A DNA stretch of 39,872 nucleotides from Candidatus Bathycorpusculum grumuli (GTDB lineage Archaea > Thermoproteota > Bathyarchaeia > Bathyarchaeales > Bathycorpusculaceae), in the NCBI GenBank assembly GCA_009776805.1, contig WRNB01000006.1, positions 1-39,872 of the forward strand, in the 5' to 3' direction. The position numbers and the translations under genes were made by a program. The notes under the pieces are model-generated. The model had not been told where the DNA came from and ran no database searches. It was given only the letters and a program-made list of their open reading frames with translations. Positions 2,208 to 33,919 of this stretch are shown one piece after another. Positions within the stretch are counted from its first letter, which is position 1. Each line of letters opens with the position of its first letter.

Positions 2208-2225
2208 TTGAGAGATTGGTCTAAA

Positions 2226-3113: not shown

Positions 3114-3125
3114 GAGGTTAAAGCT

Positions 3126-4166: not shown

Positions 4167-4172
4167 GTGTTT

Positions 4173-4463: not shown

Positions 4464-4479
4464 AACGGACAGAAATAAC

Positions 4480-5145: not shown

Positions 5146-5146
5146 G

Positions 5147-7384: not shown

Positions 7385-8061
7385 TGATGAAGATAAATGA
7401 CATTATTAACATCAGGTAGATTAGACGGGTGATAAAGATTTTTCATAGATACAGAAAAACGTTCTCGCGTAGTTGGCAATAATCCCTGATAAAACCCAAA
7501 TGGGCCAACTATTCTTGTTCGGCCTTCAATATTATTTTCAAACCACTCAGGACAACGAACAAGTAACGAGGGAATATTCATCTTAACCTCTGGAATTAGA
7601 GTAGCACCCAGTTTTCCTGAAGGTACCTCAGTTAAATTGACTCTTTCTACTTTTTTTATCCAAGCAATATCTTGAGAACGTCCAAAAGAAGGAGTTGAAA
7701 CTGGAGAAAGAAATGCTTGCTCTAACTCAAGGTTAGTTACGTATAAATCAAGCTCTGGTCGAAAATAGACATATCGTTTAATAATACCTTGCCCTTCCCT
7801 ATGTGGTGAAAGAACACCTTTTTTCAATGATAAACGATCAGTTTTTTCTATTTCAATATCTCTCGAAGAGCAATAGAACTCAAAACCAATTCTTGTATCG
7901 GATGGTCTAATTACTCGCCCTGCAATGGCACTTAACATACCTAAAAGTGTACTGTAAGGTGGACATGGTAATGAAATCTGCGTCCCCGTTATAGTTAATG
8001 GATGCTTAAAGAAAGCGGTAAACCCTTCCATTTTAACATGAAGGGCCGCAAATGTTGACAT
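7369..8061 (-). CDS. cas5: CRISPR-associated protein Cas5, type I-B (Cas5t-like)
   Basis: Cas5 caps the 5-prime handle of the crRNA in the type I Cascade complex and contacts the large subunit and Cas7. The 230-residue protein has the RAMP-type N-terminal strand ending in a hydrophobic-GFTAFF-KHP segment and the Cas5-typical PPYSTLLGMLSAIAGR helix near residues 34-50. This length and the run between cas7 and cas3 match Cas5 of the Cst (Tneap) variety of type I-B. The start codon lies two bases after the cas7 stop, and the 3-prime end overlaps cas3. There is no sign of truncation. Confidence 0.93.
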   Translation of the reverse strand: MSTFAALHVKMEGFTAFFKHPLTITGTQISLPCPPYSTLLGMLSAIAGRVIRPSDTRIGFEFYCSSRDIEIEKTDRLSLKKGVLSPHREGQGIIKRYVYFRPELDLYVTNLELEQAFLSPVSTPSFGRSQDIAWIKKVERVNLTEVPSGKLGATLIPEVKMNIPSLLVRCPEWFENNIEGRTRIVGPFGFYQGLLPTTRERFSVSMKNLYHPSNLPDVNNVIYLHQWLQQ

Positions 8062-8062
8062 A

Positions 8063-9163
8063 TTAAGTCAAAACCATTGCCATTTCTTGAGCCGATTCTA
8101 TGGGGGTAAGAACTTTAAAGGTAACACCTATATCGACCACATTTTGGAGTTGAAGCACATCTGACTCATTTTTGAGATATCCCTTTCTGATACCGATAAA
8201 TATTGGCGTTACAATTCTATCAGCATAATCCTTAGCTATTTCTTTAAGGGTATCAATTTTCAAACATGGGCCACTTCCATCATCGACAAATAGACTATTA
8301 AGCATGGGATTTCCACAAGATACACCTGCCAAAATGAGAGCCTTCGGTGCCACATCAGTACCAAACGCAGCTTGTTTTGCACCACCTCTAAGATGAGCTA
8401 ATGCATTCAATACCGCTGACGCACGTTCTTTCCGTTTTACAGCAACATCAGTTACTTCATAAACTTTACCACTTTTTTCTTCTTTTACTATCTTAATTTT
8501 TCCGTCAGTAAGAAGTTTACAAGTCTTTGCTTCATCTAATTCAACACGATCACCTATATTCCAAAACACACCTAACCGCATATAATTCAGAGAAAAAATC
8601 CCTTCCAAATGTGTATTATAGAATTCAGTAGTATAGGGCAACGGTGTTCCTTCTTTTAAATGAACAAAACCTTCATCTCGCCCCTGCCAACCAGATTTTC
8701 TAATGGAACATAAAATAGATGTACTAAAAGGTGAAGCTCTTATAACGGGTTTTACTGGTTGTCCCTTTTCTTTTACCACATCTGTTGCATCATTTTCACT
8801 ATCTTCAACATCTATGCGAGGTTTTTGTTTAGCTTCAGCACGCATATATCCAAATATGTCGTCTTCTGGATAATTAATCGGATCAAATTCACCGCCAATT
8901 TTATTTGTTGTTCCTTTTTCAGATAAATCAAGTGGTCTAAGCACGCTAGCTGGCCAATTAGTTTCTTCAATCAGAGTATTTCGAAGCCATCTTCTCCATG
9001 CTTGAGAAGAAACATATGGCACTCGATCTCTGCCGTCTCGAAAGGTTTTAGGTAAAGTTACATTACGGTTTTCACCATCACCTAAACCAGCTCCGTTAAG
9101 AAATGATGCTGAAGCTTCCACGAGAAAAGTTCCAGCTATATGAGTAAGTATTTTTGATGACAT
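8063..9163 (-). CDS. cas7: CRISPR-associated protein Cas7, type I-B (Cst2/DevR family)
   Basis: Cas7 polymerises along the crRNA spacer to form the Cascade backbone. The 366-residue protein belongs to the Cst2/DevR group: it starts ILTHIAGTFLVEASASFLNGAG, with a following DRVPYVSSQAWRRWLR segment typical of the RNA-binding face. A later GGAKQAAFGTDVAPKAL stretch marks the conserved glycine-rich region near residues 260-275. The middle (about residues 115-145) carries a polar insertion rich in Asp, Glu and Lys. It is the second gene of the interference operon, 24 bases after cas8 and two before cas5. Family assignment is from recall of conserved segments. Confidence 0.93.
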   Translation of the reverse strand: MSSKILTHIAGTFLVEASASFLNGAGLGDGENRNVTLPKTFRDGRDRVPYVSSQAWRRWLRNTLIEETNWPASVLRPLDLSEKGTTNKIGGEFDPINYPEDDIFGYMRAEAKQKPRIDVEDSENDATDVVKEKGQPVKPVIRASPFSTSILCSIRKSGWQGRDEGFVHLKEGTPLPYTTEFYNTHLEGIFSLNYMRLGVFWNIGDRVELDEAKTCKLLTDGKIKIVKEEKSGKVYEVTDVAVKRKERASAVLNALAHLRGGAKQAAFGTDVAPKALILAGVSCGNPMLNSLFVDDGSGPCLKIDTLKEIAKDYADRIVTPIFIGIRKGYLKNESDVLQLQNVVDIGVTFKVLTPIESAQEMAMVLT

Positions 9164-9187
9164 ACCTTGTAGTATTGTTTACTTAGT

Positions 9188-11113
9188 TTAAAAACTTTGC
9201 CTATAACAGTTTATCAATTCTAAACTTAATTGGAATAATCGAACATTTGCAATAGAACGCCCATTGACATCTACTAAGAAAGTTTCCCAAAAAATGTCAC
9301 CATAATAGTTTTTATTTAAAGAGGCCAGTTTCTGTTTAAACCACCAAAGCCCTTTTTCACCAGTTATTAAACCAGAAATTATCTCTTTTTCAAATCGTTC
9401 ATTCCCACGTTGTTTGAGATAATAATGAACAAATTGATAAATATCTGTTTTTATTTCCAAGGGTAACACTGATTCCTCTATTTGATCTTCTTGTAAATTA
9501 GGCACATCTATGCTGACAGGCAGATTGTTTGTTCTAAACCATTCAGTCCATAAAAGCCTAAACCTGTAAAGTGTCTCAAAAAGATTTTCCTGTTCAGTCT
9601 GACCTGAAATTAAAGATTTCCAAATACCGTAATCAAACCCCTTAGTAGTCAACGCATTTTTCAAAAACTGACGGCGCAACCAAGGTGTACCTATTTTTCC
9701 AACGGAAAATCTATCCAAAACTTCTTTTTTGAACCGTTCCCGACCTTTTTCACCGATATATTGTATAAAAATTTGTTTTGCAACATACTGTAAAGCAGAA
9801 ATAGTCATATCAGAATCAAGCATTTCAGATGGCGATGACCAATCAGTGTTAGATGCAAAATACAGAATGTATTTCCAAGCAGACCTTTTTACACCTGTGT
9901 AACGGTCTGTGTCTTCAGCAAAAAGTTTAACATATTCACTATAGCTTAAACCACCATCCTCAATCATTTCAACCATTAGTTTTCTAATTTTACTCTGAAC
10001 AGCATAGTTTGTAGTGATTTCTTTTGCTGTAGCTTCATATTTTTTCTTATCAGCTATTCGCTCCTTCAATCTACAAGCAATTTTATGCGCTACTAAAAGA
10101 CTTGCTTTTTCTGCTCTACATACTTCCGTCTGGTAAAGCATAAATAACATAGGAGATACACCAGCACTCTTTTTGTAGGGATAAAGTTTGTTGTAATCTT
10201 TCCCGACAGACACACAATTAAAAAATGAATATTCAGCATTTTTATCTGTAGCAACAAGATTTAAAATTTCGGCATTATAACCAGAAACATATGCCTTAAA
10301 TAGAAACTGCAATGCATAATTAGGTATTTCATCAATTTTACAATCAGGACCTTGACCGGAATTTGAGAACATCCATATAAAAAGGGATATCCCAGAATCC
10401 ATTCGCTTTATCTTATCCATTGCCTCAAAAGTTTTTTTGAGAAGAGCTACACTTCCTTCTTTTTTACCTAAGGTCTCAACGTTACCCGCTATAATTCTTT
10501 GATCTATTTCAAAGGCAATTGATTTGACTAAATCGTACCAAAGCTCAGTTGAGGTCGATTGAAAAACAGAAAGTTTACTTTCCCGAAGAATTACACCTTG
10601 CGGCAAATAATGAACAGCAAAAAGGCATTTTGCACACAAATTAGGTGAACGAGACCCAGCAGGCAATGCTTGCGCATCGCTACCAATACTTCCTGCAAGA
10701 GGGAACCAATCTCGTCCAACATATTTAGCATCATCTTTTTTGTAGCCTAAAGGTATTAACGTTTCTGCAATTATTTTGTCGATATCTAAACTTTTTGAGT
10801 TACCACAACTTTCACATCTCTCAGGAGAATTTTCTTGACCTATTTTATTAAGAAACGCCGTAGTAATAGCCGCATAATATTGACTTCTTTTTTCAACAGG
10901 TTTGATTCCCGGATGAGTCGCAAGGGAGTTAACAGTAAAAACTATAGTCATACTTTTTAGTTTTGAATTTCGACGTGCCAGTTCACTTCCGTCGCCATGT
11001 ACCTCTTTTATCTTTTCAAGAGTAAGGTCACCTATACAGTTACAACCACTTTTTGCAGCAAGAACTGCGAGTCCTGTATCAACAAACGGATTACCAGTAA
11101 GAGAGAGATACAT
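9188..11113 (-). CDS. cas8b1: CRISPR-associated large subunit Cas8b1 (Cst1)
   Basis: Cas8 is the Cascade large subunit that reads the PAM and stabilises the R-loop. The 641-residue protein starts YLSLTGNPFVDTGLAVLAA, the hallmark opening of the Cst1/Cas8b1 family, and has a zinc-finger-like pair CESCGN (about residue 99) and CAKCLF (about residue 158). Its position directly upstream of cas7-cas5-cas3 confirms the role. ATG 11113 has no ribosome-binding site but lies about 27 bases from a strong TATA box (11137-11144), so the transcript is probably leaderless. The assignment makes the effector type I-B of the Cst kind. Confidence 0.9.
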   Translation of the reverse strand: MYLSLTGNPFVDTGLAVLAAKSGCNCIGDLTLEKIKEVHGDGSELARRNSKLKSMTIVFTVNSLATHPGIKPVEKRSQYYAAITTAFLNKIGQENSPERCESCGNSKSLDIDKIIAETLIPLGYKKDDAKYVGRDWFPLAGSIGSDAQALPAGSRSPNLCAKCLFAVHYLPQGVILRESKLSVFQSTSTELWYDLVKSIAFEIDQRIIAGNVETLGKKEGSVALLKKTFEAMDKIKRMDSGISLFIWMFSNSGQGPDCKIDEIPNYALQFLFKAYVSGYNAEILNLVATDKNAEYSFFNCVSVGKDYNKLYPYKKSAGVSPMLFMLYQTEVCRAEKASLLVAHKIACRLKERIADKKKYEATAKEITTNYAVQSKIRKLMVEMIEDGGLSYSEYVKLFAEDTDRYTGVKRSAWKYILYFASNTDWSSPSEMLDSDMTISALQYVAKQIFIQYIGEKGRERFKKEVLDRFSVGKIGTPWLRRQFLKNALTTKGFDYGIWKSLISGQTEQENLFETLYRFRLLWTEWFRTNNLPVSIDVPNLQEDQIEESVLPLEIKTDIYQFVHYYLKQRGNERFEKEIISGLITGEKGLWWFKQKLASLNKNYYGDIFWETFLVDVNGRSIANVRLFQLSLELINCYRQSF

Positions 11114-11136
11114 AAACTTTCAAATATGTTGTGTAC

Positions 11137-11152
11137 TATTTATACTTTCAGA
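11137..11152 (-). promoter_or_regulatory. TATA/BRE promoter of the cas8b1-cas7-cas5-cas3 operon
   Basis: On the minus strand CTGAAAG is followed directly by TATAAATA (11144-11137), an A-rich BRE plus TATA box. Its centre is about 27 bases from the ATG at 11113, which predicts transcription starting at or next to the start codon. The remainder of the 228-base gap to cas6 is A+T-rich and shows no gene. Confidence 0.75.
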
Positions 11153-11341
11153 AATTTTTTCACAGAGAACCACTAAAAACTTGTTAGTTTAAAGAACATA
11201 TCAAAAACACTTCAGTAAAAAACCAAAAATATCGTCAACAAGTTAATTCACTCTGTTTACAAAAATGAACAAGAAAAATAGATACTCAACATAACAATTT
11301 TCATATCTACAATCCAATAAAAACTCAACACAAAACTCAAG

Positions 11342-12139
11342 CTACCAAAGTTTTACTTGTCCGTATGCCGCTGTTTTGTTTCCACCTATGTTTGCGTATT
11401 CGGCGTATTTGGCTAGCATATGTGTTATTTTGTTGTAGGGGTTTTCTTTATCATCTAGTTTATAGGTTATTGTACCGGTGAAACCTGTGGCTTTTTTGTT
11501 GCGCATTGTTGCCAGTTTTGTTTGCAGTTCATATTTGCTTACGCCCACATTTTTTTGCAGCCATTCTTTATAGTTTAGGTATTCTTCTTTGCTAAATGTT
11601 GTGCTATCACTGAATTGGTTCCAGCGTCGCATTAGACTGCAGAAAACTTTTAGGGGATCTGGAAACATCCAGTGATAGTTACTGTTTAAGTTTGATAGGT
11701 AAGTGGGGGTTTTAAATTCTAGTGTTAAATTGCCTATTGAGTGTGCTTCTTTTTCTAGGTCAGCGTAACTTTTACAGTTTATATGCATGGAAGCTATTTG
11801 GAACGTCGTATCAAAAATTAATGCAGTGTTTTGTTTCTGAAAAAAATTCAAAATATAATTTGCATATTCATCTTTTAAAAAACGAAAACTTACTTTACAT
11901 GGAAATAACGGATTTAACAGGTAACCGTTTTCAGCACGACTGCTGCTTCGGAATCGTAGAGGAGTTACACTATAGGGCTTAGACACATCAAGCTCATGTA
12001 ACAATGCTGAAGCACTCGGATCAACTAATCGTATAAAATGTAACAATAACCCACGCGCAACATGACCAGTAAAAAACGGCATCTCAACAGCATTCTCTGC
12101 ATACATTACTAAACCAATCTCAATAGGCAACAAATTCAC
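11342..12139 (-). CDS. cas6: CRISPR repeat endoribonuclease Cas6
   Basis: Cas6 cuts the repeat in the precursor crRNA 8 nt from its 3-prime end, leaving the ATTGAAAG handle. The 265-residue protein has the double ferredoxin-like RAMP pattern, with a late TGFTGTITYKL strand. The family C-terminal glycine-rich loop reads NIGGNKTAAYGQV. A conserved GHVARGLLLHFIRL helix lies near residues 25-38 and may carry the catalytic His. The start is GTG, within AAAGGTGA; TTG codons just downstream are alternatives. It is set apart from cas8 by 228 bases and has its own TATA box, so it is probably an independent transcript. Within the gene the + strand is G+T-rich at 11342-11700 and A+C-rich near 11950-12130. 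Confidence 0.9.
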   Translation of the reverse strand: MNLLPIEIGLVMYAENAVEMPFFTGHVARGLLLHFIRLVDPSASALLHELDVSKPYSVTPLRFRSSSRAENGYLLNPLFPCKVSFRFLKDEYANYILNFFQKQNTALIFDTTFQIASMHINCKSYADLEKEAHSIGNLTLEFKTPTYLSNLNSNYHWMFPDPLKVFCSLMRRWNQFSDSTTFSKEEYLNYKEWLQKNVGVSKYELQTKLATMRNKKATGFTGTITYKLDDKENPYNKITHMLAKYAEYANIGGNKTAAYGQVKLW

Positions 12140-12171
12140 CTTTTATTAACTAAACTAATGATACTAATAAC

Positions 12172-12182
12172 GGATTATAAAC
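12172..12182 (-). promoter_or_regulatory. Putative cas6 TATA box
   Basis: The minus strand reads TTTATAATCCG across this point, about 38 bases from the GTG start of cas6, leaving room for a short leader with the AAAGGTGA site. The same string TATAATCCGTT occurs upstream of glyA (25891-25902), also at promoter distance. Confidence 0.5.
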
Positions 12183-12811
12183 AAATGGCAAACTATAAAC
12201 ATTTTTACAAATAAAGCTTTGAAACAAAAATCAGGCCTCTTTGTTCAGAATTTTTTCAGCTTGAACCATTAAGTCGATACGTCTAATGTACCTACTGCAC
12301 ATTACCATTTAGTAGATTCAAACTGTGTGTAATGTATTTACAACAAAATGGTTCATACATAGTGTTTATTTTTATTTTTCTTATTTATTTCACAGTCAAG
12401 TTTTTGGTGCTGTAAACTAATCGGTTATTTTGTTATGTAGTGAAATGTGTCTCTGTTAGTCCATCAATAAATAGCAGGAAGTGAAAGTTTTCATGTGTAG
12501 ATAAATAAGGTTGGTTTTTTGTAATTTTGCTCACTATCATCAACATTTTTAACCAACAAATTTCAATTTTTCCACATCTTTCACCTTTTCTTTTACAATC
12601 TGACGAGATTAAATTTACAAATCTAACTAAAAGTGAAAGCTCTCCAAAAAGTTTTCGCGCGGATGTAATCTAGACATTAAACATTTATCTGTTTAAACTA
12701 TAATGGTATAGTTGTAGAGAAAAGTGGTGGAAATAATATTGACTCAAAACATGTTGGTTGGATAGGTTTTTATTTGGGGGTGTAAAGTTATGTTCTTTGC
12801 ATTGGTTGTTT
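12183..12811. other. Intergenic region between cas6 and tRNA-Pro
   Basis: I see no gene in these about 630 bases. The sequence is A+T-rich with neutral strand composition. The only structured item is TTACCATTTAGTAGA (12302-12316), whose near-copies lie at 22725-22739 and 22811-22825, with CTACT just upstream at 12292-12296 giving an AGTAG/CTACT inverted pair. No integrase or attachment repeat was recognised beside the tRNA. Confidence 0.6.
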
Positions 12812-12886
12812 GGGGCTCTCGGCTAGCTTGGTCTAGGCTTGTAGACTTGGGCTCTATAGACTCCGGTTCAAATCCGGAGAGCCCCA
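12812..12886 (+). tRNA. tRNA-Pro (TGG anticodon)
   Basis: The cloverleaf folds fully. The acceptor is GGGGCTC with GAGCCCC. The D-stem is GGCT with GGCT (two G-U pairs) and an 11-base loop containing GG. The anticodon stem is GTAGA/TCTAT around loop CTTGGGC, giving anticodon TGG. The variable loop is 4 bases and the T-arm is TCCGG-TTCAAAT-CCGGA. The discriminator is A, and CCA is encoded at 12887-12889. No intron is present. It marks the boundary between the compositionally neutral CRISPR-Cas block and the strongly strand-skewed region to its right. Confidence 0.96.
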
Positions 12887-12889
12887 CCA

Positions 12890-13227
12890 TTTTACTCACG
12901 TTTTATATTGTTTTTTGTGTTAATTTTTTTATATAGTAAAATTTGATTTAATACGAGTTTGAAAGATGTTTTTTAAGATGGTTAATTTTGTTAACATTTA
13001 ACAGGTTCTATTGGTGTTTTATAGTAAAGTGGTTCATATATAATATTTTATTGTGTTTTTTCTGTTTTATAGTGCAATTGTAAAAAAATTATGCGTGTTT
13101 TTTTATTATCGAGGAGCGTCATTGTGTATTTCTGTTGTGTGGTAGTAAAAAATGTGGTTTGTGGTGGTGTTTTTGTGTTTGTTTGTTGGTTGATGGGTTT
13201 TTTGGGGTTTTGTTGTTTGTTTTTTGG
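12890..13227. other. T/G-rich intergenic stretch right of tRNA-Pro
   Basis: No gene is supported. T runs follow the tRNA (around 12890-12930) and could serve termination. From about 13150 the + strand is almost only G and T: bases 13201-13260 hold 58 G/T. Open frames on the + strand here translate into Phe/Val/Cys-rich strings that are composition artefacts. Confidence 0.6.
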
Positions 13228-13767
13228 TTATGTTTTGTTTGGGTTTTGTTGTCTTTTTTGTTTGCGTTTGTCTTGTCTTTTTGTGTTTTTGTTGTGTGTT
13301 TTGTTTTCTTTGTTGGTTTCAATTTCAATGTAATTGTCATCATCGTCGTAATGTTCATCGTCATCATCATCGTCGTAATGTTCATCACCATCATCATCAT
13401 CGTAATGTTCATCACCATCATCATCGTAATGTTCATCATCATCGTCGTTGTATGTTTCGTTCATTTCTTTTAGCATGAGTGTGAATGCCATCATGACTTC
13501 GACGTGTTTGATGATGTTGTCTAGGAGGAAGTCGATTCCTTTTGTTGTGATTTCTATGGTGTTGTTGGTGCGTTCGAACAATTTTTTGTTGATGGCCATT
13601 TTTTCGAGTTGTTCGCGTACTTTTGGGGGGAGATGTTTGTAGTATTTTGTTACTTTTTTTGTGGGTTTTAGGTGGTATAGGCATATTATTGTGTAAACTG
13701 TGTTAGTTGTGATTTCGCGTATTAGTTCTGTGTCTATTTCTTCTAGGTTTACTTGGTTTTCGTCCAT
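13228..13767 (-). CDS. Uncharacterised protein with winged-helix-like N-terminus and Asp/His repeat tail
   Basis: I do not recognise the 179-residue product. Residues 1-100 are predicted helical and end in an EITTKGIDFLLDN strand-helix resembling the wing and last helix of small archaeal winged-helix regulators; this is a guess from pattern only. Residues about 107-143 are four units of the form DEHYDDDD, a strongly acidic stretch with regularly spaced His and Tyr. The last 35 residues are Lys/Asn/Gln-rich. An alternating Asp/His tract could bind divalent metal or mimic nucleic acid. ATG 13767 has GGAGACC 8 bases upstream, supporting translation. It lies in the most G+T-skewed block of the window. 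Confidence 0.65.
   Translation of the reverse strand: MDENQVNLEEIDTELIREITTNTVYTIICLYHLKPTKKVTKYYKHLPPKVREQLEKMAINKKLFERTNNTIEITTKGIDFLLDNIIKHVEVMMAFTLMLKEMNETYNDDDDEHYDDDGDEHYDDDDGDEHYDDDDDDEHYDDDDNYIEIETNKENKTHNKNTKRQDKRKQKRQQNPNKT
13338..13449. repeat. 27-bp coding minisatellite (DEHYDDDD units)
   Basis: The string CGTAATGTTCATC recurs at 13347, 13374, 13401 and 13425, with spacings 27, 27 and 24. CATCATCATC triplet runs of varying length separate the copies. All lengths are multiples of three, so the minus-strand frame is kept and the repeat encodes Asp-rich units with a constant EHY core. Unit-length variation suggests replication slippage. Confidence 0.9.
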
Positions 13768-14315
13768 TTTTTGGTCTCCGATTTGTTTTTTGTTTGTGGG
13801 GTTGTTTGTTTTTTTGTTGTAATTATATGTATATGTTGTTTTTCGTTTATTAATTGTTTTGGTGTGTTGTTTTTTGGGAGTTTGTTTGTGAAAATGGTGG
13901 GTTTTTGTTGTTGTAAATGGTTTTGTGTGTTTTTTTGGGAGTGTTTTTGTTTAGAGAGGTTTGTAGTGTAATATTTTTACGGTGGGTAGTGGGGTGGAAA
14001 TTAATGGTAAATATAGAGTTGTTTTCTAGAAAGATGTTAAAATCAGTAAAGTGTGAAAAATGTTTTTATCTTTTTAAATGTGAAAACTCTTGATGTTTTG
14101 GTTTTTGTTTGTGTTTTGTTGTTGTTTTTTTGTTGTTTTGTGTGTTTTGTGTTGTTTTTGGTTTGGTGTTGTTGTTTTGTTGTTGGTTGGTTTGTTGAAA
14201 AATTGGGGGTTTGGTTTGTTTGGGTTTGTTTTTTGGTTTGTTTTTTTGTTGTGTTTTTGGGTGTTGGTTGTGTTGGTGTGTTTTTGTTAGTTGGTTGTTT
14301 GGTTTTTGGTTGTGT
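13768..14315. other. Extreme G+T intergenic tract
   Basis: No gene is supported. Bases 14094-14197 (104 nt) contain no A or C, and 14203-14288 (86 nt) likewise. Open frames on the + strand are Phe/Val/Cys/Leu strings without protein features. The minus strand would be a pure C/A tract. I saw no simple tandem period in it; GTTT, TTG and GGTTTGT words recur irregularly. Confidence 0.85.
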
Positions 14316-14744
14316 TTAGTGTATGTATGTGTATGGTGTTGTTGGTTGGGTGTTTTCGGTTTTTTGTATTGTTTTGCAGATGTTGTTTAGTGAGTTTTCT
14401 GTGTATGTGATGATGTTTTTGCCTGTTGTTGTTATGGTGAAGACTTTGCAGGGTTTTTCTGCGTTCATGTTCCAGTTGCTGTGGAGGTAGCCTTTTTTTT
14501 CGAGTTTTGTTAGTAGTGGGTAGATTGTGCTGGGTCCGAAGTTTGCGCCAAAGATTTGGTGGGTTTTTGTGATTATTTGGTAGCCGTGCATGGCTTGTTG
14601 GTTTATTAGTTGTAGTACGATTAGGTCGAGTAGGTTTTTTGTTAGTTTTGTTTGTATTGCTTTTTGGTAGTTTGCGTATATGTTTTTTGTTTTTGTGTTG
14701 TTTGTGTGTGTTTTGTTTGTGTTTATGTTTATGTTTGTGTTCAT
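14316..14744 (-). CDS. PadR-family transcriptional regulator
   Basis: PadR regulators are dimeric winged-helix repressors, usually of small-molecule or membrane-stress genes. The family core spans about residues 33-112 of 142: LTKNLLDLIVLQLINQ, then MHGYQI, the recognition segment GPSTIYPLLTKLEKKGYL, and a wing ending in FTITTTGK. The N-terminal 27 residues are Asn/Thr/Lys-rich and may be untranslated or simply reflect the A+C-rich coding strand. The C-terminus is short for the family. It is monocistronic as far as can be seen, with an unrelated gene 548 bases downstream; its target is unknown. Confidence 0.87.
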   Translation of the reverse strand: MNTNININTNKTHTNNTKTKNIYANYQKAIQTKLTKNLLDLIVLQLINQQAMHGYQIITKTHQIFGANFGPSTIYPLLTKLEKKGYLHSNWNMNAEKPCKVFTITTTGKNIITYTENSLNNICKTIQKTENTQPTTPYTYIH

Positions 14745-15075
14745 TTTTTTTCGTCTCTTGTTTTCGGTATATTATTTTTTAGTTGTCGTATGTATTACTT
14801 AATAACTATTCATTCATATAAGATCTCATACATAATTTGGGCATATGGTTTTTGGGTTTGTTGTATATGTGTTTTACGTGGATACGGGTTTAACGTGGTT
14901 TTTCAACAGTATTTAGTGTTTTTTTGGTGTTTTTTGATGTGTAGTACAGTACAACATTAACTTGAAATATTACCACATGGACAACATACAAAAGCACAGT
15001 ATAATATTCAACAACACAAACCATAAAATATAAAAATACAAAAAAATAAAAAATAAACAAATATAATCCTAAAAA
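14745..15075. other. Intergenic region where + strand switches from G+T- to A+C-rich
   Basis: No gene is supported. The stretch 14760-14850 is A+T-rich with several TATA-like strings (CATATAAG near 14816) that could serve the PadR gene. Between about 14940 and 15000 the + strand changes from T/G-rich to A/C-rich over tens of bases. Confidence 0.6.
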
Positions 15076-15306
15076 CTAGACCGAATCAACCCTTTGAATT
15101 TCAGGCACACACGCCTTAACATGCGCCTCAATACCATTCTTAAGAGTCATCATAGCCATAGGACAACCAGCACAATGACCAACCAACCGCACCTTCACAA
15201 CATCACCCTCAACAGCAACCAACTCTACATCACCACCATCACCCTGAATCTGCGGCCTCACATCATCAAGTGCAGCTTGAACACGTTTCTTAACTAAATC
15301 TTCCAT
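15076..15306 (-). CDS. NifU C-terminal-domain protein (Fe-S cluster carrier)
   Basis: This stand-alone NifU-like domain transiently holds an iron-sulfur cluster and passes it to apo-proteins. The 76-residue protein begins MEDLVKKRVQAALDDVRPQI, continues with the family's QGDGGDVELV, and has the cluster-binding CxxC in GHCAGCPMA, then MTLKNGIEAHV. An earlier in-frame start would add 30 hydrophobic residues that match nothing in the family, so ATG 15306 is chosen. Its coding strand is G/T-rich, opposite to the neighbouring PadR gene although both are read leftward. Likely clients include the radical-SAM enzymes MoaA and NrdG. Confidence 0.93.
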   Translation of the reverse strand: MEDLVKKRVQAALDDVRPQIQGDGGDVELVAVEGDVVKVRLVGHCAGCPMAMMTLKNGIEAHVKACVPEIQRVDSV

Positions 15307-15500
15307 AAACATCACATAAACCCACATAACAAACAAACAATGTTTAAAGATTTCTGAAAAAAACACCAAAAACAACCAACAAAAAAACAAAACCACAAAC
15401 CAAACAAAAAATGTAACAAAAACACAAACCCTAAAAAAACAACCACAACAACAAAAACTCTACAACCAAAAAATCAAACAACCCCCAAACACACCACCAA

Positions 15501-16565
15501 TTAAACACCTGACCTTGGCTGCTGCTGAGAAACACAATGAATCGCCCCATACCCATTAACCAAATCAACACAATTTATACCCACAACCTTCCTATCAGGA
15601 AACAAACCCTGCAAAATACCCAAAGCAACCACATCATTCTCATGACCAAAAACCGGCACAAGAACCTTTGTATTACCAACATAAAAATTAGTATAACTCG
15701 CCGGAAGCAAACAACCCTCACCATCAACAACATCACCAGGCATAGGCAACTTTACAACATCCAAAAACTCACCATCCTGATCCCTCGCAGACACTAAAAT
15801 CTCATAATTAACCCTTAAAGCATCAAAATTCCCATCACCCACATCATCCTGATAAGCACAAACAACAGTCCTAGGACCCACAAACCGCGCTATATCATCA
15901 ACATGCCCATCAGTATCATCCCCATTAATACCATTCTTAAGCCAAATAAAATGACTAACACCCAAATGAGACTTCAAATAATCCTCAATAACCTGCCAAG
16001 ACAAATTCGGATTCCGATTCGAATTCAACAAACACTGCATAGTTGTAAGCAAACTACCCCGACCATTAACATCAAACGAACCACCCTCCATAACTAGAGA
16101 CGGCCTAAAACATGGAACCCCAAGAAACTGATTAACAACCTGAGGAATAACCTTATCCTTCAAAAGCGTATCATACTTATCACCCCACGCATTAAACACC
16201 CAATTCACCATCGCCAACTCCTGCCTACCATTCACTATAAAAGTAGGACCATAATCACGAAACCACACATCAGCATAATCAAACACAAAAAAACGAATTT
16301 TAGCAAAATCCACATCCACAGCATGTAGTAAAGCGGTAACCTTTTGCTGCATACTCTTACTTTTTACAAAAAGATTAACATTTTCACTTGTATGAATCTC
16401 CTTTATTATTTCCACATACGTTGCTTCAACACCATCAACACAATTAGGAAAAGTTAAAGGATCATGAGGCCAACTTAACCATATAGCATCATGAGGCTCC
16501 CATTCAGCAGGCATACGATAACCCAACTCAACAGGCGTTTTTGAAGTAATAATATTGTTAAACAT
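15501..16565 (-). CDS. aguA: Agmatine deiminase
   Basis: The enzyme hydrolyses agmatine to N-carbamoylputrescine and ammonia. The 354-residue protein has the guanidino-group-modifying fold signatures: WLSWPHDPLTF, RDYGPTF, MEGGSFDVNGRG, GDDTDGHVDD (catalytic His and Asp) and the nucleophile C344 in GAIHCVSQ near the C-terminus. ATG 16565 lies one base after the stop of the upstream amidase and is preceded by GGTGAG, so the two are translationally coupled. Together they convert agmatine to putrescine without urea. Archaea more commonly use agmatinase, so the pair may have been acquired from bacteria; that is inference. Confidence 0.95.
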   Translation of the reverse strand: MFNNIITSKTPVELGYRMPAEWEPHDAIWLSWPHDPLTFPNCVDGVEATYVEIIKEIHTSENVNLFVKSKSMQQKVTALLHAVDVDFAKIRFFVFDYADVWFRDYGPTFIVNGRQELAMVNWVFNAWGDKYDTLLKDKVIPQVVNQFLGVPCFRPSLVMEGGSFDVNGRGSLLTTMQCLLNSNRNPNLSWQVIEDYLKSHLGVSHFIWLKNGINGDDTDGHVDDIARFVGPRTVVCAYQDDVGDGNFDALRVNYEILVSARDQDGEFLDVVKLPMPGDVVDGEGCLLPASYTNFYVGNTKVLVPVFGHENDVVALGILQGLFPDRKVVGINCVDLVNGYGAIHCVSQQQPRSGV

Positions 16566-16566
16566 T

Positions 16567-17460
16567 TTATTTCTCACCAATTTTTTTAGTCAAAAACTTG
16601 TATGTATCAGGACGACGATTTTTAAGAAAACCCCACCCATCTCTAACACGTTTATTAAATGACAAATCAACCTCAGCAATCAAAATCTCTTCTTTTCCAC
16701 CTGCTTGAGCAAGAATAGTTCCAAAAGCATCACAAATAAAACTACCACCCCAAAACTCAAGATCACCCTCACTACCCACACGATTAACCGCTGCAACATG
16801 CACACCATTTACAATAGCATGACTACGTTGAACAGTTTGCCACGCATCTTGCCAATCACCATCACCAGAAACATGACCTCTAATATACCCAATTGCTGTG
16901 GGATAAAATATAATGTCTGCACCTTGTAGAGTACAAATTCTTGCAGCTTCAGGAAACCATTGATCATAACATATCAGTACTGCAATTTTAGCAAAAGTTG
17001 TATTGTAAATTTGGTAACCTAAATCACCTTGAGCAAAATAGTTTTGTTCATAAAACATTGGATCTTGAGGAATGTGAATTTTGCGGTACGTTTTAAGTAG
17101 TTTACCATTAGTGTTAACTACAACAACAGAGTTGTAAAATTTATTGTTTAAAGCTTGTTCATATAAGGGTATTATTATGACGATTTTGTGTTTTTTTGCA
17201 AGTTTACAAAAAATTTGTGTTGATTTGCCGGGTATGGTTTCAGCGTATTTTGTGGTGTTTTGTTGTTCTTCTTTTTCTTTTTGAGGAAAATATTGGGTGT
17301 GGTAGAGTTCTTGTAAACAGATTATTTGTGCACCTTTTTTTGCGGCTTCTTCAATTTTGTTAATTGTTTTTTCTAAATTTGCAGTTAGGTTTTCTGAAAC
17401 TGTTGTTTGAATAAGCCCTAGTATTACAGTTTTTTCAAGTTTACTGTTAACGTCTACCAA
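16567..17460 (-). CDS. aguB: N-carbamoylputrescine amidase (nitrilase superfamily)
   Basis: The enzyme cleaves N-carbamoylputrescine to putrescine, CO2 and ammonia, the step after agmatine deiminase. The 297-residue protein shows the Glu-Lys-Cys triad of carbon-nitrogen hydrolases: the Glu in CLQELYHTQYFP, the Lys in YRKIHIPQDPMFYEQ, and the Cys in AVLICYDQWFPEAAR. The segment HTQYFPQ and the FYEQNYF loop are typical of the putrescine branch. The start is probably TTG 17460; no better ATG fits the family's N-terminus. Strand composition changes inside the gene, with the + strand A/C-rich below about 16900 and G/T-rich above about 17100. Confidence 0.94.
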   Translation of the reverse strand: MVDVNSKLEKTVILGLIQTTVSENLTANLEKTINKIEEAAKKGAQIICLQELYHTQYFPQKEKEEQQNTTKYAETIPGKSTQIFCKLAKKHKIVIIIPLYEQALNNKFYNSVVVVNTNGKLLKTYRKIHIPQDPMFYEQNYFAQGDLGYQIYNTTFAKIAVLICYDQWFPEAARICTLQGADIIFYPTAIGYIRGHVSGDGDWQDAWQTVQRSHAIVNGVHVAAVNRVGSEGDLEFWGGSFICDAFGTILAQAGGKEEILIAEVDLSFNKRVRDGWGFLKNRRPDTYKFLTKKIGEK

Positions 17461-17524: not shown

Positions 17525-17622
17525 AAAATTAGGGTTATTTAAATGTGTTAGAGTTGTTTGCTATTGGTTTATTAAGTGTGATTGTTAGATAGTTAGTGTT
17601 GTATTTAGTGGAGGTAGAGTTG

Positions 17623-18807
17623 ATGTCTCATGTAAGTGTGTTTAAAGACGAGTCAAAGTTGGATATAAACTACCTTCCGGTTCGTATTCTTCATAGGGAT
17701 TTGGAAAATCGGCTTTTGATGGAGTTTTTTAGTTTTCTTACTCATTGTCCGGATCGTATGTCGCAGCGTGTTTTGGTGGTTGGTGAGGTGGGTACAGGGA
17801 AGACTGTGTTTTGTCAGGTGTTTGGTAGAAGTATTAGTGTTGAGATGGGTAAAAGGGGTATAAAGTTTCGGTATATTCATGTTAATTGTCGTGAGTATCG
17901 TGGGAATTTGTTGCAGATTTTGCATCAGGTTATAGTGGGTTTTCAGCCTAATTTTCCTTCGAGGGGTTATTCGATTGGTGAGATTCTTAAGAGTTTGTTG
18001 CAATTGTTTGAGAGTGAGCAGGTGTTTGTTGTTTTGGCTCTTGATGAGTTTGATAGTTTAATTGAAAAGGAAGGTTCGGATGCTGTTTATGAGCTTACAA
18101 GGATTCAGGAAATGTGTCAGGGGAAACCTCATCGGGTTTCGTTTATTTTTATTCAGCGTAGGCTTTCGGCGTTGAAGGTTTTGGATGATAGTGCTCAAAG
18201 TACTTTGCAGAGTAATGTTATAAGGCTTGAGAGGTATGGTAAAGAGTCGTTGGTTGATATTTTGGGTGAACGGGTTAGGTTGGCTTTTGAGGTGGGTGTG
18301 GTTGCAGAGGATGTTGTAGAGTTGGTTGCAGAGTTGGCTGCGAGTAAGTTGGGGAATGCGCGGTTTGGTATAGAGTTGTTGTGGCGTTCGGGTAAGTATG
18401 CTGATGCTCAGGGTGTGAAGTGTGTTGAGCCTGAATGTGTGCGTCAGGCGGTTTCGGCGATTTTGCCTACGTTTAAGCGTAATGAGGTGAATGGGTTAGA
18501 GTTGCATGAAAAGTTTTTGTTGTTGGCGGTTGCGCGTTTTTTTAAGGAGAGTAAGGAGGCTTTTGCGTCGTTAGTGGAGATTGAGGATGTTTATGGTGTT
18601 GTTTGTGAGGAGTATGGGCAGGCTCCGTATAGTCATACGCAGGTGTGGAAGTATTTGCAGCAGTTTGCTCAGAAGGGTATTGTGAATGCTGAGGTGGTTT
18701 CTGGTGTTTCGCGGGGGCGTTCGACTAGGGTTTCGTTGCCGTTGGTTTCTGCGGTGGTGTTGGAGCGGGAGTTGTTTGAGTTGTTGGAAATGGAGTTTGG
18801 TAGTTAG
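17623..18807 (+). CDS. orc1: Orc1/Cdc6-family replication initiator AAA+ ATPase
   Basis: Archaeal Orc1/Cdc6 binds origin recognition boxes and loads the MCM helicase. The 394-residue protein has Walker A GEVGTGKT (54-61), Walker B LALDEFD (about 138-144), sensor 1 around SFIFIQRRLSALKV, the lid segment, and a C-terminal winged helix from about residue 285 to the end. ATG 17623 has GGAGGT seven bases upstream; the in-frame GTG at 17596 lies before that site and is rejected. The coding strand is G/T-rich. It heads a tightly packed set with a winged-helix regulator and moaCBA. Sequence is typical for the family but somewhat divergent, so a paralogue not acting at the main origin is possible. Confidence 0.93.
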   Translation: MSHVSVFKDESKLDINYLPVRILHRDLENRLLMEFFSFLTHCPDRMSQRVLVVGEVGTGKTVFCQVFGRSISVEMGKRGIKFRYIHVNCREYRGNLLQILHQVIVGFQPNFPSRGYSIGEILKSLLQLFESEQVFVVLALDEFDSLIEKEGSDAVYELTRIQEMCQGKPHRVSFIFIQRRLSALKVLDDSAQSTLQSNVIRLERYGKESLVDILGERVRLAFEVGVVAEDVVELVAELAASKLGNARFGIELLWRSGKYADAQGVKCVEPECVRQAVSAILPTFKRNEVNGLELHEKFLLLAVARFFKESKEAFASLVEIEDVYGVVCEEYGQAPYSHTQVWKYLQQFAQKGIVNAEVVSGVSRGRSTRVSLPLVSAVVLERELFELLEMEFGS

Positions 18808-19085
18808 TGGAGTTGGAAGATGTTTTTTCGTCAAGGATGCGTGTAAAGATTTTAAAGTTGATTTTCAAGTTTGGGCAGCTTAATGTTTCTGAGATTGCGC
18901 GTCGGGTTAATTCGAATTATTCGTCTACTGCTGGGCATTTGAAGGTTTTGGAGTCTGAGGGGGTTTTAAAGGTTTATTTGTATGGTCGGGTGAGGTTGTA
19001 TAGTTTTAATAGTGGTTCTCAAAAGTCGAAGGTTGTGCAAGCTTTAATAGATGTGTGGGAGCAGAGTGGTAGGAGTGGTTATTGA
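18807..19085 (+). CDS. Small winged-helix (ArsR-like) transcriptional regulator
   Basis: The 92-residue product is a single winged helix-turn-helix domain: SSRMRVKILKLIFKFG, LNVSEIARRVN, then the recognition helix YSSTAGHLKVLESEGVL and a wing ending in VRLYSF. No metal-binding cysteines are present, so it is not a classical metal-sensing ArsR. The GTG start overlaps the orc1 stop by one base and its stop overlaps the moaC start, so it is firmly in the operon. It could regulate the operon or act with Orc1; nothing in the sequence decides this. Confidence 0.87.
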   Translation: MELEDVFSSRMRVKILKLIFKFGQLNVSEIARRVNSNYSSTAGHLKVLESEGVLKVYLYGRVRLYSFNSGSQKSKVVQALIDVWEQSGRSGY

Positions 19086-19522
19086 TGGTTATGGTTGATG
19101 TTTCGGGTAAAGGTGAGGTTTTTAGGGAGGCGTTGGCTTTGGGTGTGATTCGTCTTAAGGCTGAGACGGTGAGGCTTGTTTTGGAGGGGAAGATTGTTAA
19201 GGGTGATCCGTTGTGTGTTGCTAGGGTTGCGGGGGTTTTGGCGGCTAAAAAGACTAGTGAGTTGGTTCCGTTGTGTCATCCGTTGCCGTTGTCTAGTGTT
19301 GAGGTTTGTCCTAGGGTGGTTGATGGGGGTTGTATTGAGGTTTTAGCTACTGTAAAGACTTGTGCTCAAACGGGTGTAGAGATGGAAGCGTTATCTGCAG
19401 TGTCAGCGGCTTTGTTAACAATATGGGATATGGTTAAGCAGTATGAAAAGGATGAGAATGGTCAGTATCCTTCTACGGTTATAGAGAGTATTCGTGTTGT
19501 GCGTAAATTTAAGCAGGTTTGA
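19085..19522 (+). CDS. moaC: Cyclic pyranopterin monophosphate synthase MoaC
   Basis: MoaC converts the MoaA product (3-prime,8-cyclo-GTP) to cyclic pyranopterin monophosphate, an early step to molybdopterin or tungstopterin. The 145-residue protein has the signature KKTSELVPLCHPLPL (about 58-72), the TCAQTGVEMEALSAVSAALL segment and the C-terminal YPSTVIESIRVVRK. ATG 19085 overlaps the previous stop (TGATG); ATG 19091 is possible and would give the common MVDVS start. The coding strand is G+T-rich, in sharp contrast to moaA 500 bases downstream. No residues expected for catalysis are missing. Confidence 0.96.
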   Translation: MVMVDVSGKGEVFREALALGVIRLKAETVRLVLEGKIVKGDPLCVARVAGVLAAKKTSELVPLCHPLPLSSVEVCPRVVDGGCIEVLATVKTCAQTGVEMEALSAVSAALLTIWDMVKQYEKDENGQYPSTVIESIRVVRKFKQV

Positions 19523-20073
19523 TTATAGTGAATGAAATAAATATGCATAAAACTCAGGTGTCTGAAAAGTTGAATTTTGCGGTATATATTTGTAGTACAT
19601 CTCGTTATCGTCAAATCGAAAAAGGTGAATCCTTTTCAGATGTCAGTGGAGACACTATACAAACCCTAGTACAAGCCGCTGGACACACAATACTATATAA
19701 AGAAATATTATTAGACGATAAAACAATAATTAATAATGCATTAGAAAACTGTTTAACAATAAACAATTTAGACGTAATAATTTTTTCAGGCGGCACAGGC
19801 ATCTCACCTACAGATGTAACAATTGAAACCATCACACCCTTCTTAGAAAAAACTTTACCAGGATTTGGCGAATTCTTCAGACGCCTCAGCTACGACGAAA
19901 ACAAAACAGAATCACTACTAACAAGAGCCACAGCAGGCACAAAAAATGGCAAAGCATTTTTCTGCATCCCAGGCTCACCTAACGCAGCAAAACTTGCAAT
20001 TGAAAAACTCATCCTACCCGAAGCACCACACATCATTAAACATGCACGTGAACAACATGACACTTCACGATAA
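19519..20073 (+). CDS. moaB: Molybdopterin adenylyltransferase-type protein MoaB/MogA
   Basis: The MoaB/MogA fold adenylylates molybdopterin before metal insertion; archaea use MoaB for this. The 184-residue protein has VYICSTSRY near the N-terminus, SDVSGDTIQTLVQAAGH, the substrate-binding FSGGTGISPTDVTIE (about 94-108) and a late CIPGSPNAAKLAIEKL. The start is uncertain among TTG 19519 (overlapping the moaC stop by four bases), GTG 19528 and ATG 19543. Strand composition flips inside the first quarter of the gene, near 19600: G/T-rich before and A/C-rich after. It overlaps moaA by 17 bases. Confidence 0.93.
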   Translation: MIIVNEINMHKTQVSEKLNFAVYICSTSRYRQIEKGESFSDVSGDTIQTLVQAAGHTILYKEILLDDKTIINNALENCLTINNLDVIIFSGGTGISPTDVTIETITPFLEKTLPGFGEFFRRLSYDENKTESLLTRATAGTKNGKAFFCIPGSPNAAKLAIEKLILPEAPHIIKHAREQHDTSR

Positions 20074-21001
20074 CTTTGGACGACCACTACTTAACCTAAG
20101 AATATCAGTCACACAAAAATGCAATTACCACTGCACATACTGCCACATGGAAGGCGAAACCACACACACAAACAACACAGAAATGAACACAAAAGAAATC
20201 ACACAAATAGCAAAAGCAACCGTAGAATTAGGAATCACACGCATAAAACTCACAGGCGGCGAACCCTTAATACGAAAAGACATCTGCGAAATTGTAAAAA
20301 ACCTATCAACCATACCAGGACTAAAAGACTTATCATTAACAACCAACGGCTCACTACTACTACCAAACACTGCAAAAAAACTATACCAGTCAGGCCTAAA
20401 CCGAATAAACATAAGCCTACCCACCCTAAACCCTAAAACATACAACAAACTTACAAAAAACAACCTCAACAAAACACTAACAGGCATAAACGCAGCAATA
20501 AAAGCAGGCTTCAACCCCATCAAACTAAACATGGTCATACTTAAAAACATAAACGAAAACGACGTACTAGACATGATAACCTACGCAGAAAAAACACAAG
20601 TAATCCTACAACTCATAGAACTTGACCCAATAAACCTCAACACCCAATATTATAAACAACACCACCACAATCTAGAAAAACAAGAAGAAATACTAAAACA
20701 AAAAGCAATAAACATAAAACAGCGGCAATTTATGCACAACCGTCAAATCTACCAATTACCAAACACTACAGTAGAAACTGTACATCCCATAGAAAATACC
20801 GATTTTTGTAACCACTGCACAAGACTACGTCTTACAAGTGATGGAAAACTCAAGACTTGCCTTATGCAAAACAACAACCTAACTGATATTCTAACACCTC
20901 TTCAACAAGGAGCTGGCAAAGAAGAGCTAAAACAAATAATCAAACAGGCAAACCAACAAAGAAAACCCTACAACAACCAAACAACAAACAATCCACTCTA
21001 A
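20057..21001 (+). CDS. moaA: GTP 3-prime,8-cyclase MoaA (radical SAM)
   Basis: MoaA uses a radical-SAM 4Fe-4S cluster to cyclise GTP in the first step of molybdopterin synthesis. The 314-residue protein starts MTLHDNFGRPLLNLRISVT, as family members do, with the SAM cluster at C22, C26 and C29 (CNYHCTYC) and the GGEPL motif (about 62-66). The second cluster's cysteines near the C-terminus read FCNHCTRLRLTSDGKLKTC. Longer in-frame starts at 19946 and 20042 would add residues not in the family. The protein is unusually rich in Asn, Thr, Lys and Gln, which follows from the A+C-rich coding strand. It is the last gene of the orc1-moa operon. Confidence 0.95.
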   Translation: MTLHDNFGRPLLNLRISVTQKCNYHCTYCHMEGETTHTNNTEMNTKEITQIAKATVELGITRIKLTGGEPLIRKDICEIVKNLSTIPGLKDLSLTTNGSLLLPNTAKKLYQSGLNRINISLPTLNPKTYNKLTKNNLNKTLTGINAAIKAGFNPIKLNMVILKNINENDVLDMITYAEKTQVILQLIELDPINLNTQYYKQHHHNLEKQEEILKQKAINIKQRQFMHNRQIYQLPNTTVETVHPIENTDFCNHCTRLRLTSDGKLKTCLMQNNNLTDILTPLQQGAGKEELKQIIKQANQQRKPYNNQTTNNPL

Positions 21002-33238: not shown

Positions 33239-33919
33239 CTACTTCACCACCAAAACTGCACGCTTAATCACATAAACCCCCGAAGTACGATCCCACACCA
33301 CCTCAAAATCCAAAACTTCAACCCGCTGCCTAAACAACGGCGCATCCAAAACAGTAGTCTCAATTTCACCCCCCTCCCCAGACACACTAATACCATACTT
33401 CTCCGACAACACTAAAAGCCGCCCAAACAAATCCCTATCCAACAACCTACCCAACCACGAAACATCCAACGGATAAGCAAACACACCCGAAATAACCACA
33501 CTAAACTTACACTCAAACAACCTCTCCAACAACGCCTTTTGACCAAACTTCCACAACGGATTAAAACACACCAAACCCAAACCATCACAAATCCTCTGAA
33601 CCCTACTCACCTGATACACCGACTCAACCGCACCAGTAACCACACCCTCAATACCAAACAAAACCTTAGCCTGCAAAATAGCCCGCTCCAAATCAACAAG
33701 CTCCTCCTCCTTACACCCCTCCGTAACCACCGAAACCAACGGCAACCCCAAAGCCTGAGCCTGCAACACAGTAACATCCACATTAGGCGTATGAAACATA
33801 TAACTCTCCTTATTCTTCGAAACAACAGTAATCAAACAAACAACCTGCCCCTTTTCAGCAGCCAAATGTAAAGCAAGCGTAGAATCCTTGCCACCTGAAA
33901 ACAACACACCAAATCTCAT
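33239..33919 (-). CDS. dph6: Dph6-like ATP-pyrophosphatase (diphthine-ammonia ligase family)
   Basis: Dph6 carries out the last step of diphthamide formation on elongation factor 2, amidating diphthine with ATP. The 226-residue protein has the PP-loop SGGKDST (8-14) and the family's later GVVTGAVES and SGEGGEIETTVLDAPLF (about 183-200). It corresponds to the archaeal stand-alone ATP-binding domain form. ATG 33919 is about 27 bases from TATATA (33944-33949) and has no ribosome-binding site, so the transcript is probably leaderless. Substrate assignment rests on family membership; related PP-loop proteins can have other substrates. Confidence 0.88.
   Translation of the reverse strand: MRFGVLFSGGKDSTLALHLAAEKGQVVCLITVVSKNKESYMFHTPNVDVTVLQAQALGLPLVSVVTEGCKEEELVDLERAILQAKVLFGIEGVVTGAVESVYQVSRVQRICDGLGLVCFNPLWKFGQKALLERLFECKFSVVISGVFAYPLDVSWLGRLLDRDLFGRLLVLSEKYGISVSGEGGEIETTVLDAPLFRQRVEVLDFEVVWDRTSGVYVIKRAVLVVK

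What the first reader, a model, noticed from the sequence alone, without database searches (positions are those of the whole stretch)
14094..14288. Two long runs with no A or C (104 and 86 nt) in an intergenic tract
Bases 14094-14197 and 14203-14288 contain only G and T, broken by five A residues. The complementary strand is pure A/C. There is no fixed tandem period. Such a tract cannot self-pair and would make a very asymmetric duplex; it might promote R-loops, bind single-strand or KOW-type proteins, or be the extreme end of the skew process above.
Basis: seen in the sequence. Interest (0 to 1): 0.55.

Follow-up and report, generated by a model that had tools for sequence, protein, structure and literature searches.

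The report
Saturated one-strand mutation bias tract
The two G/T-only runs are most likely not a special element but the unconstrained part of a stretch of archaeal DNA in which one strand has lost almost every A and C, the sign of an unusual patchy strand-specific mutation process in this group of archaea.

Summary
Confirmed: 14094-14197 and 14203-14288 hold only G and T, separated by AAAAA. They lie between two minus-strand genes of a Bathyarchaeia MAG, genus Bathycorpusculum by its relatives. They look like no discrete element: the adjoining PadR gene has 53 of 53 four-fold sites G/T on the same strand, the next gene, same orientation, 9%. The runs are non-coding DNA in a saturated 'keto' block (about 12.9-14.945 kb). 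Blocks of either sign, about 1 kb in correlation length, recur in the genome and genus; G/T-only 50-mers occur in 16 of 25 genus genomes, 0 of 16 others. A-loss and C-loss are coupled gene by gene (r 0.73-0.94 in 11 genomes of two clades). Polarity is shared across convergent gene ends but not across divergent gene starts and does not follow coding direction. Best reading: a local strand-specific transition process (A to G plus C to T). Both clades lack intact Endonuclease V, but a specific prediction of that cause failed, and 7 of 14 long runs sampled lie nearest to a balanced gene. What sets the sign is unknown.

The parts
14094..14197 (+). 104-nt run of G and T only
14203..14288 (+). 86-nt run of G and T only, separated from the first by AAAAA
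12900..14945 (.). block with G/T-rich + strand (67-94% G+T in the seven 300-bp bins from 12901); left edge behind the tRNA-Pro gene, sharp right edge at about 14945
13228..13767 (-). small gene with AprA-type winged-helix similarity (below Pfam cut-off) and acidic repeat tail; 91% G/T at 46 four-fold sites on the + strand
14316..14744 (-). PadR-family regulator gene; 53 of 53 four-fold sites are G or T on the + strand
14945..17000 (.). neighbouring block of opposite sign (A/C-rich + strand), fading rightward; covers the NifU-like and PAD_porph genes
15076..15396 (-). NifU-like gene, same orientation as PadR but 9% G/T at four-fold sites on the + strand; the true start is probably internal, since the Pfam match begins at residue 39
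15357..15411 (+). 55-nt A/C-only run, mirror image of the finding, in the opposite block
17596..19522 (+). Cdc6/Orc1, HTH and MoaC genes: 93-95% G/T at four-fold sites on the + strand
19519..21001 (+). MoaB-type and MoaA genes, directly behind MoaC on the same strand, but 22% and 17% G/T: polarity flips at a gene junction
33239..33919 (-). Dph6-type (diphthamide synthase) gene, 3% G/T on the + strand, next to NrdR and NrdD (75% and 90%)

Best explanation
The runs are neutral, non-coding DNA in a block where a strand-specific mutation process has gone to completion: on the + strand A has become G and C has become T, so only G and T remain; in coding DNA of the same block mainly synonymous sites have followed. 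Shown: the same one-sidedness at synonymous sites next door, blocks of both signs, coupling of A-loss and C-loss, limits at gene starts, restriction of the long runs to this genus among the genomes searched. Inferred: that the changes are transitions, and the chemistry. I think repeated exposure of one strand, with deamination of its A and C (to hypoxanthine and uracil) and weak repair, is the most likely cause; fixation of G-T mispairs in favour of one strand is nearly as good. What decides which strand is hit is not known. (Mutational saturation about 0.85; the deamination step alone about 0.35.)
For: PadR 53/53 four-fold sites G/T, NifU and PAD_porph in the same orientation 9%. Four-fold composition on the keto strand of extreme genes: A 0.087, C 0.009, G 0.302, T 0.602 (1739 sites) against A 0.357, C 0.138, G 0.092, T 0.412 in balanced genes (9878 sites). 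Log(G/A) and log(T/C) per gene correlate 0.73-0.94 in 11 of 11 genomes of clades A and B. Spread of gene polarity far over binomial: sd 0.170 against 0.044, 295 genes. L073 has the same flip, PadR 0.07 and NifU 0.89 on the coding strand, and the same polarity in the DNA behind PadR. EndoV is absent (10) or broken (1) in 11 of 11 genomes of clades A and B, intact in 11 of the other 14 genus members and in 15 of 16 outside the genus. The window's own genome also lacks a PF03167 UDG match.
Against: EndoV loss should raise the purine side (A to G) above the pyrimidine side; it does not: the two spreads are about equal in clades A and B, and the purine share is higher in some genomes that keep EndoV (G007, G011, G016). 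Among members without intact EndoV, G017 and G018 have little polarity and G022 is moderate; G036, outside the genus, lacks both EndoV and UDG and has none. Ranges overlap: EndoV-containing G009, G005 and G014 spread more than EndoV-lacking G001 and G024. The EndoV association (p 0.035 and 0.023; 0.040 by another measure) is not corrected for ancestry and rests mainly on two clades. EndoQ-like and NucS genes are still present in G000. Of 14 pure runs of at least 45 nt in the sample, the nearest scored gene has matching strong polarity in 7 and is near balance in 7, so long runs also form in short blocks that genes do not share. No rate or direction of substitution was measured.
Confidence: 0.6

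Rival explanations
1. Net transcription sets the strand: the non-template strand of the dominant transcript, sense or read-through antisense, is exposed and mutated over the whole interval between promoters.
For: Polarity is shared within gene clusters and across convergent ends but not across divergent starts. The window block begins just behind a tRNA-Pro gene pointing into it.
Against: Coding-strand polarity centres near 0.5 (mean 0.528) and does not clearly shift with upstream or downstream gene context; sense transcription should push it one way. In L073 a tRNA-like sequence beside the block seems to point away from it (+ strand, 13293-13413, sub-threshold Rfam match; ARAGORN calls nothing there).
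Confidence: 0.25
2. Strand-biased fixation of G-T mispairs: one strand of each block is repeatedly copied or repaired with G-T wobble errors kept in its favour, for example through many local replication or gap-repair starts at promoters.
For: A to G and C to T move together with similar amplitude, as one mispair type would give; blocks tend to end at gene starts.
Against: Needs replication or repair units of a few kb or less, not known in archaea (recalled); NucS, which acts on G-T mismatches (recalled), is present in 38 of 41 genomes.
Confidence: 0.25
3. A long-range replication skew broken up by gene shuffling.
For: An IS630-type HTH gene is present (28307-28852) and two sharp flips on different contigs lie in similar sequence. 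MoaB has 22% coding G/T here but 38-78% in nine relatives, so a local replacement cannot be excluded there.
Against: The order Cdc6-HTH-MoaC-MoaB-MoaA and CNhyd-PAD beside it is kept in the named relatives as far as their contigs reach, while polarity varies; the PadR/NifU flip is shared with L073, where the two genes are also adjacent.
Confidence: 0.05
4. A functional G/T tract (protein-binding, recombination-stimulating or R-loop site) kept by selection.
For: Unusual length and purity; G/T-rich DNA is a preferred substrate of RecA-type proteins (recalled).
Against: Equal one-sidedness at synonymous sites of the adjacent gene; no run of 35 nt or more behind PadR in L073; run length mostly expected from local bias; no Rfam match in 12000-16000 except the tRNA.
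Confidence: 0.04
5. Assembly or sequencing artefact.
For: Metagenome assembly of 173 contigs.
Against: 16 genomes of the genus have such runs and a separate MAG has the same block polarity.
Confidence: 0.02

Closest known systems
Replication-linked strand skew of bacterial chromosomes
   Same: Skew seen at synonymous and non-coding sites; [quoted passage not shown]
   Different: Bacterial skew runs over half a chromosome (recalled); [quoted passage not shown]
Heavy-strand asymmetry of animal mitochondria (recalled)
   Same: One strand loses both A and C, attributed to deamination of exposed DNA.
   Different: One replication unit with one sign; here many small blocks of either sign in a cellular chromosome.
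Transcription-linked strand asymmetry (recalled)
   Same: Limits at gene starts; A>G and C>T on one strand.
   Different: Sign should follow coding direction; here it does not on average.
Strand-coordinated mutation clusters (kataegis; recalled)
   Same: kb-sized stretches with strand-coordinated changes, either strand.
   Different: Those are single events; saturation of synonymous sites with proteins kept needs long repetition at the same place.

Membership tests
Replication-linked strand skew | One sign over long replichores, flipping only at origin and terminus | tested here: not met
   Signs alternate every few kb in the window; polarity autocorrelation nearly gone by 2-4 kb
Replication-linked strand skew | Effect at synonymous and non-coding sites | tested here: met
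   (intergenic G/T correlates 0.24-0.48 with flanking genes)
Transcription-linked asymmetry | Block limits at gene starts | tested here: met
   Mean product at 300-1000 bp 0.0150 (same direction) and 0.0088 (opposite) without an upstream gap between, 0.0009 and -0.0016 with one; bootstrap over 59 loci; distance classes. Weaker for tandem neighbours: in strict calls still r 0.29 across a gap
Transcription-linked asymmetry | Sign follows coding direction | tested here: not met
   PadR and NifU same direction, opposite sign; convergent neighbours share + strand sign, r 0.39 (102 pairs), divergent -0.04 (94 pairs)
Deamination asymmetry | A and C both lost on the same strand | tested here: met
Deamination asymmetry | Loss of EndoV raises the purine side specifically (my prediction) | tested here: not met
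Deamination asymmetry | Measured excess of C>T and A>G on the exposed strand | not testable with these tools
   needs reads or strain polymorphism
Tandem repeat / microsatellite | Fixed period with high identity | tested here: not met
Structured RNA element | Covariance-model match or stable fold | tested here: not met

The most novel reading that the evidence does not exclude
These archaea carry a heritable, promoter-bounded patchwork of strand identity: each interval between gene starts has a 'keto' strand kept for long evolutionary times independently of coding direction, so some strand-specific process (local replication starts, antisense traffic or a self-reinforcing exposure of G/T-rich strands) marks DNA strands at the scale of single transcription units.
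Probability: 0.35. Interest if true: 0.82.

Novelty: new variant of a known kind. Interest (0 to 1): 0.58.

Why it matters
Archaeal chromosomes are held to show little strand-specific mutation (PMC12999951, abstract and passages). A genus in which blocks are driven to near-total loss of A and C on one strand, with limits at gene starts but no tie to coding direction, is a natural experiment on which cellular process exposes or mis-repairs one DNA strand. It also warns gene finders: such DNA has few stop codons on either strand, so ORF length means little there.

Tried and rejected
Tandem repeats, RNA families (window 12000-16000), stable folds, relatives of the tract among plasmids: nothing (phage and E. 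coli collections were not searched). Breakpoint motifs at 32 sharp flips: 16 of each sign, no common motif by eye. A sawtooth (sharp one way, gradual the other) suspected in the window: the numbers of sharp flips of both signs are equal. NucS loss: present in 38 of 41 genomes. EndoQ-like loss (TIGR00375; that this family is EndoQ is recalled): present in 38 of 41, none over the curated cut-off. A genus-specific deaminase: PF00383 in 23 of 25 genus genomes, mostly one copy, and in 8 of 16 others, so not specific. Function of extreme genes: 18 of 28 scanned (8 in the window; 10 others), no common theme. Read-through from tRNA-Pro as general driver: not supported by L073.

Limits: genes outside the window were called with my own classifier (253 homology segments, mostly Cdc6 and Moa genes; right frame in 99.6% in leave-one-family-out tests), not a standard gene finder; 'promoter' means a gene start with at least 80 bp of upstream gap. 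Of the 14 long runs, my caller puts 5 inside ORFs, which may be spurious. Genome samples are unequal (5.6 to 400 kb); G026, outside the genus, shows a high spread on 5 genes only. The tree used three proteins, 28 genomes having at least two of them; some nodes are weak (0.13, 0.46, 0.53). Absence of a gene in a MAG may be incompleteness. The bootstrap left out four loci (L139, L141, L153, L157) that repeat the Cdc6-Moa region; searches kept them. Three named loci (L072, L075, L076) turned out to share exact sequence with G020, G021 and G001, so one search counted them twice; the corrected correlation is.

Full report
1. The observation. Bases 14094-14197 and 14203-14288 contain only G and T, separated by AAAAA. 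The tract is intergenic, between two minus-strand genes: a winged-helix-like gene (13228-13767; Pfam WH_AprA, E 7.9e-5, below its cut-off) and a PadR-family gene (14316-14744; E 5.6e-16). There is no fixed period, neither strand folds as RNA, and Rfam finds only the tRNA at 12812 in 12000-16000.

2. Where it is. The window is contig C6, 1-39872, of a 2.29-Mb, 173-contig genome, 97.6% complete. The seven closest named relatives of the PAD_porph protein at 15501-16580 (69-73% identity, of 14 found) include five titled Candidatus Bathycorpusculum; the other two are titled Nitrososphaerota archaeon. This genus covers termite-gut lineages and MAGs from peat, sediment and digesters (PMC10684969, passages read).

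3. The run is part of a block. G+T on the + strand is 0.67-0.94 in the seven 300-bp bins from 12901, then 0.19-0.38 in the six from 15001; the steepest change is at 14945. At four-fold sites PadR is 53/53 G/T on the + strand; NifU and PAD_porph, in the same orientation, 9%; Cdc6, HTH and MoaC 93-95%; MoaB and MoaA directly behind them 22% and 17%; Dph6 3%. First and second codon positions shift the same way, less strongly (PadR 0.73, NifU 0.35, MoaA 0.32). Given the local bias, block shuffles of this region already yield longest runs of 53 nt on average and up to 102. The run therefore needs no function of its own.

4. Genome-wide. In 440 kb of the genome (400 kb sampled plus the window), 295 genes with at least 40 four-fold sites have coding-strand G/T fractions with mean 0.528 and sd 0.170 (binomial 0.044); the distribution has one central peak with long tails, 42 genes above 0.7 and 27 below 0.3. 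Extreme genes have A 0.087, C 0.009, G 0.302, T 0.602 on the keto strand; balanced ones A 0.357, C 0.138, G 0.092, T 0.412 on the coding strand. The window is thus an extreme part of a general feature. Of 14 pure runs of at least 45 nt in this sample, 9 are intergenic by my calls; the nearest scored gene has matching polarity (at least 0.69 or at most 0.31) for 7 and is near balance (0.46-0.61) for the other 7, two of which have a gene of 0.08 next in line. So the match between run and neighbouring gene seen here is not universal; some blocks must be shorter than a gene.

5. Across relatives. G/T-only 50-mers occur in 16 of 25 genomes of the genus and in 0 of 16 of other genera in the order. 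Per gene, log(G/A) and log(T/C) correlate 0.73-0.94 in all 11 genomes of clades A (G000, G001, G002, G008, G010, G020, G021) and B (G004, G012, G015, G024); among the 11 genus members with intact EndoV the range is 0.00-0.76; G022 0.74, G018 0.27, G017 -0.07; in eight genomes outside the genus 0.02-0.73, the highest on 10 genes (clades). A single process acting on both A and C of one strand would explain this (inference).

6. Sign and its inheritance. NrdD has coding G/T below 0.5 in all 25 genus genomes (0.10-0.48) but 0.48-0.55 in five outside. Dph6 and Cdc6 vary in sign between lineages. Over 17 window genes the window values correlate with the mean of clade A and four further named relatives (r 0.58, p 0.015; clade A alone 0.56, p 0.021, duplicates removed); with clade B r 0.71 (7 genes, p 0.07) and with the EndoV-containing members r 0.63 (10 genes, p 0.05). 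L073 shares the PadR/NifU flip and the polarity of the DNA behind PadR, without a pure run of 35 nt or more there. PadR is below 0.35 in all five other relatives held, NifU 0.41-0.89 in four; MoaB, by contrast, is 0.22 here but 0.38-0.78 in nine relatives, so some signs change.

7. Limits of blocks. In 11 polarised genomes, neighbouring genes less than 20 bp apart in the same direction correlate 0.49 (230 pairs) in + strand polarity, convergent neighbours 0.39 (102), divergent -0.04 (94). Strict calls: 0.50 (114), 0.34 (42), -0.16 (38), but tandem neighbours across a gap still 0.29 (84). In the 11 EndoV-containing genus members, taken separately, convergent 0.42 (68) and divergent -0.11 (58); in eight outgroups convergent 0.05 (25), divergent 0.01 (24). 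At 300-1000 bp the mean product is 0.0150 (same direction) and 0.0088 (opposite) without an upstream gap between, 0.0009 and -0.0016 with one; the difference was not positive in 0 and 0.4% of 2000 locus bootstraps. It holds in 200-bp distance classes, least at 200-400 bp. Mean coding polarity shows no clear shift with gene context (largest -0.023, SE 0.012); uncentred, the + strand falls by 0.066 (SE 0.027) across divergent and rises by 0.051 (SE 0.017) across convergent junctions, a small excess of A/C on coding strands. So blocks tend to end at gene starts, yet sign hardly follows gene direction.

8. Repair genes. EndoV (PF04493) is missing in 12 genus genomes, broken or fragmentary in 2 (G012, G022), intact in 11; 15 of 16 others have it. 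All 11 genomes of clades A and B lack an intact copy. Lost against intact: median excess spread 0.144 against 0.111, p 0.035; 50-mer counts p 0.023; neither corrected for ancestry, and the ranges overlap. UDG (PF03167) is missing in G000 and G022 only within the genus, and in G030, G032 and G036 outside. Against a causal role: the purine side is not raised relative to the pyrimidine side; G017, G018 and, outside the genus, G036 lack EndoV without strong polarity. I treat EndoV loss as a possible amplifier or a companion of something else, such as host association.

9. Literature. [quoted passage not shown] A term search of the termite Bathyarchaeia paper (PMC7886697) and the Bathy-6 MAG paper (PMC11697101) gives no 'skew'. 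Searches for Bathyarchaeia with GC skew (one paper, on rRNA, seen in the listing only), termite with archaea and nucleotide skew (none), and wider ones on strand asymmetry and deamination (listings only) showed no earlier report, within an open-access library only.

10. Verdict. The finding is real, but the tract is most likely a by-product. The interest lies in the genus-wide, block-wise, gene-start-limited, direction-independent strand bias that produced it, whose cause is open.

Noticed in passing
window 2208-12139: CRISPR-Cas genes (Csa1 at 2208-3113 and Cas6 at 11342-12139 by Pfam, with further ORFs between them) at the left end of the contig, in a region of mostly weak polarity.
   Followed up: partly
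window 13228-13767: Small winged-helix-like protein with an acidic tail of repeated DDDDGDEHY-type units, encoded by a 27-bp tandem repeat at 13337-13456.
   Followed up: no
window 15076-15396: The GTG start of the NifU-like ORF is probably too far upstream; the A/C-only run 15357-15411 would then be non-coding too.
   Followed up: partly
window 28307-28852: IS630-type helix-turn-helix gene between blocks of opposite sign.
   Followed up: no
G012:C26:7790-8342: Endonuclease V match in three pieces with internal stops, probably a pseudogene; G022:C30 has a short remnant with stops.
   Followed up: partly
L042 near 5910 and L044 near 8658: Similar sequence at two sharp polarity flips on different contigs, possibly a repeated mobile element carrying its own skew.
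   Followed up: no
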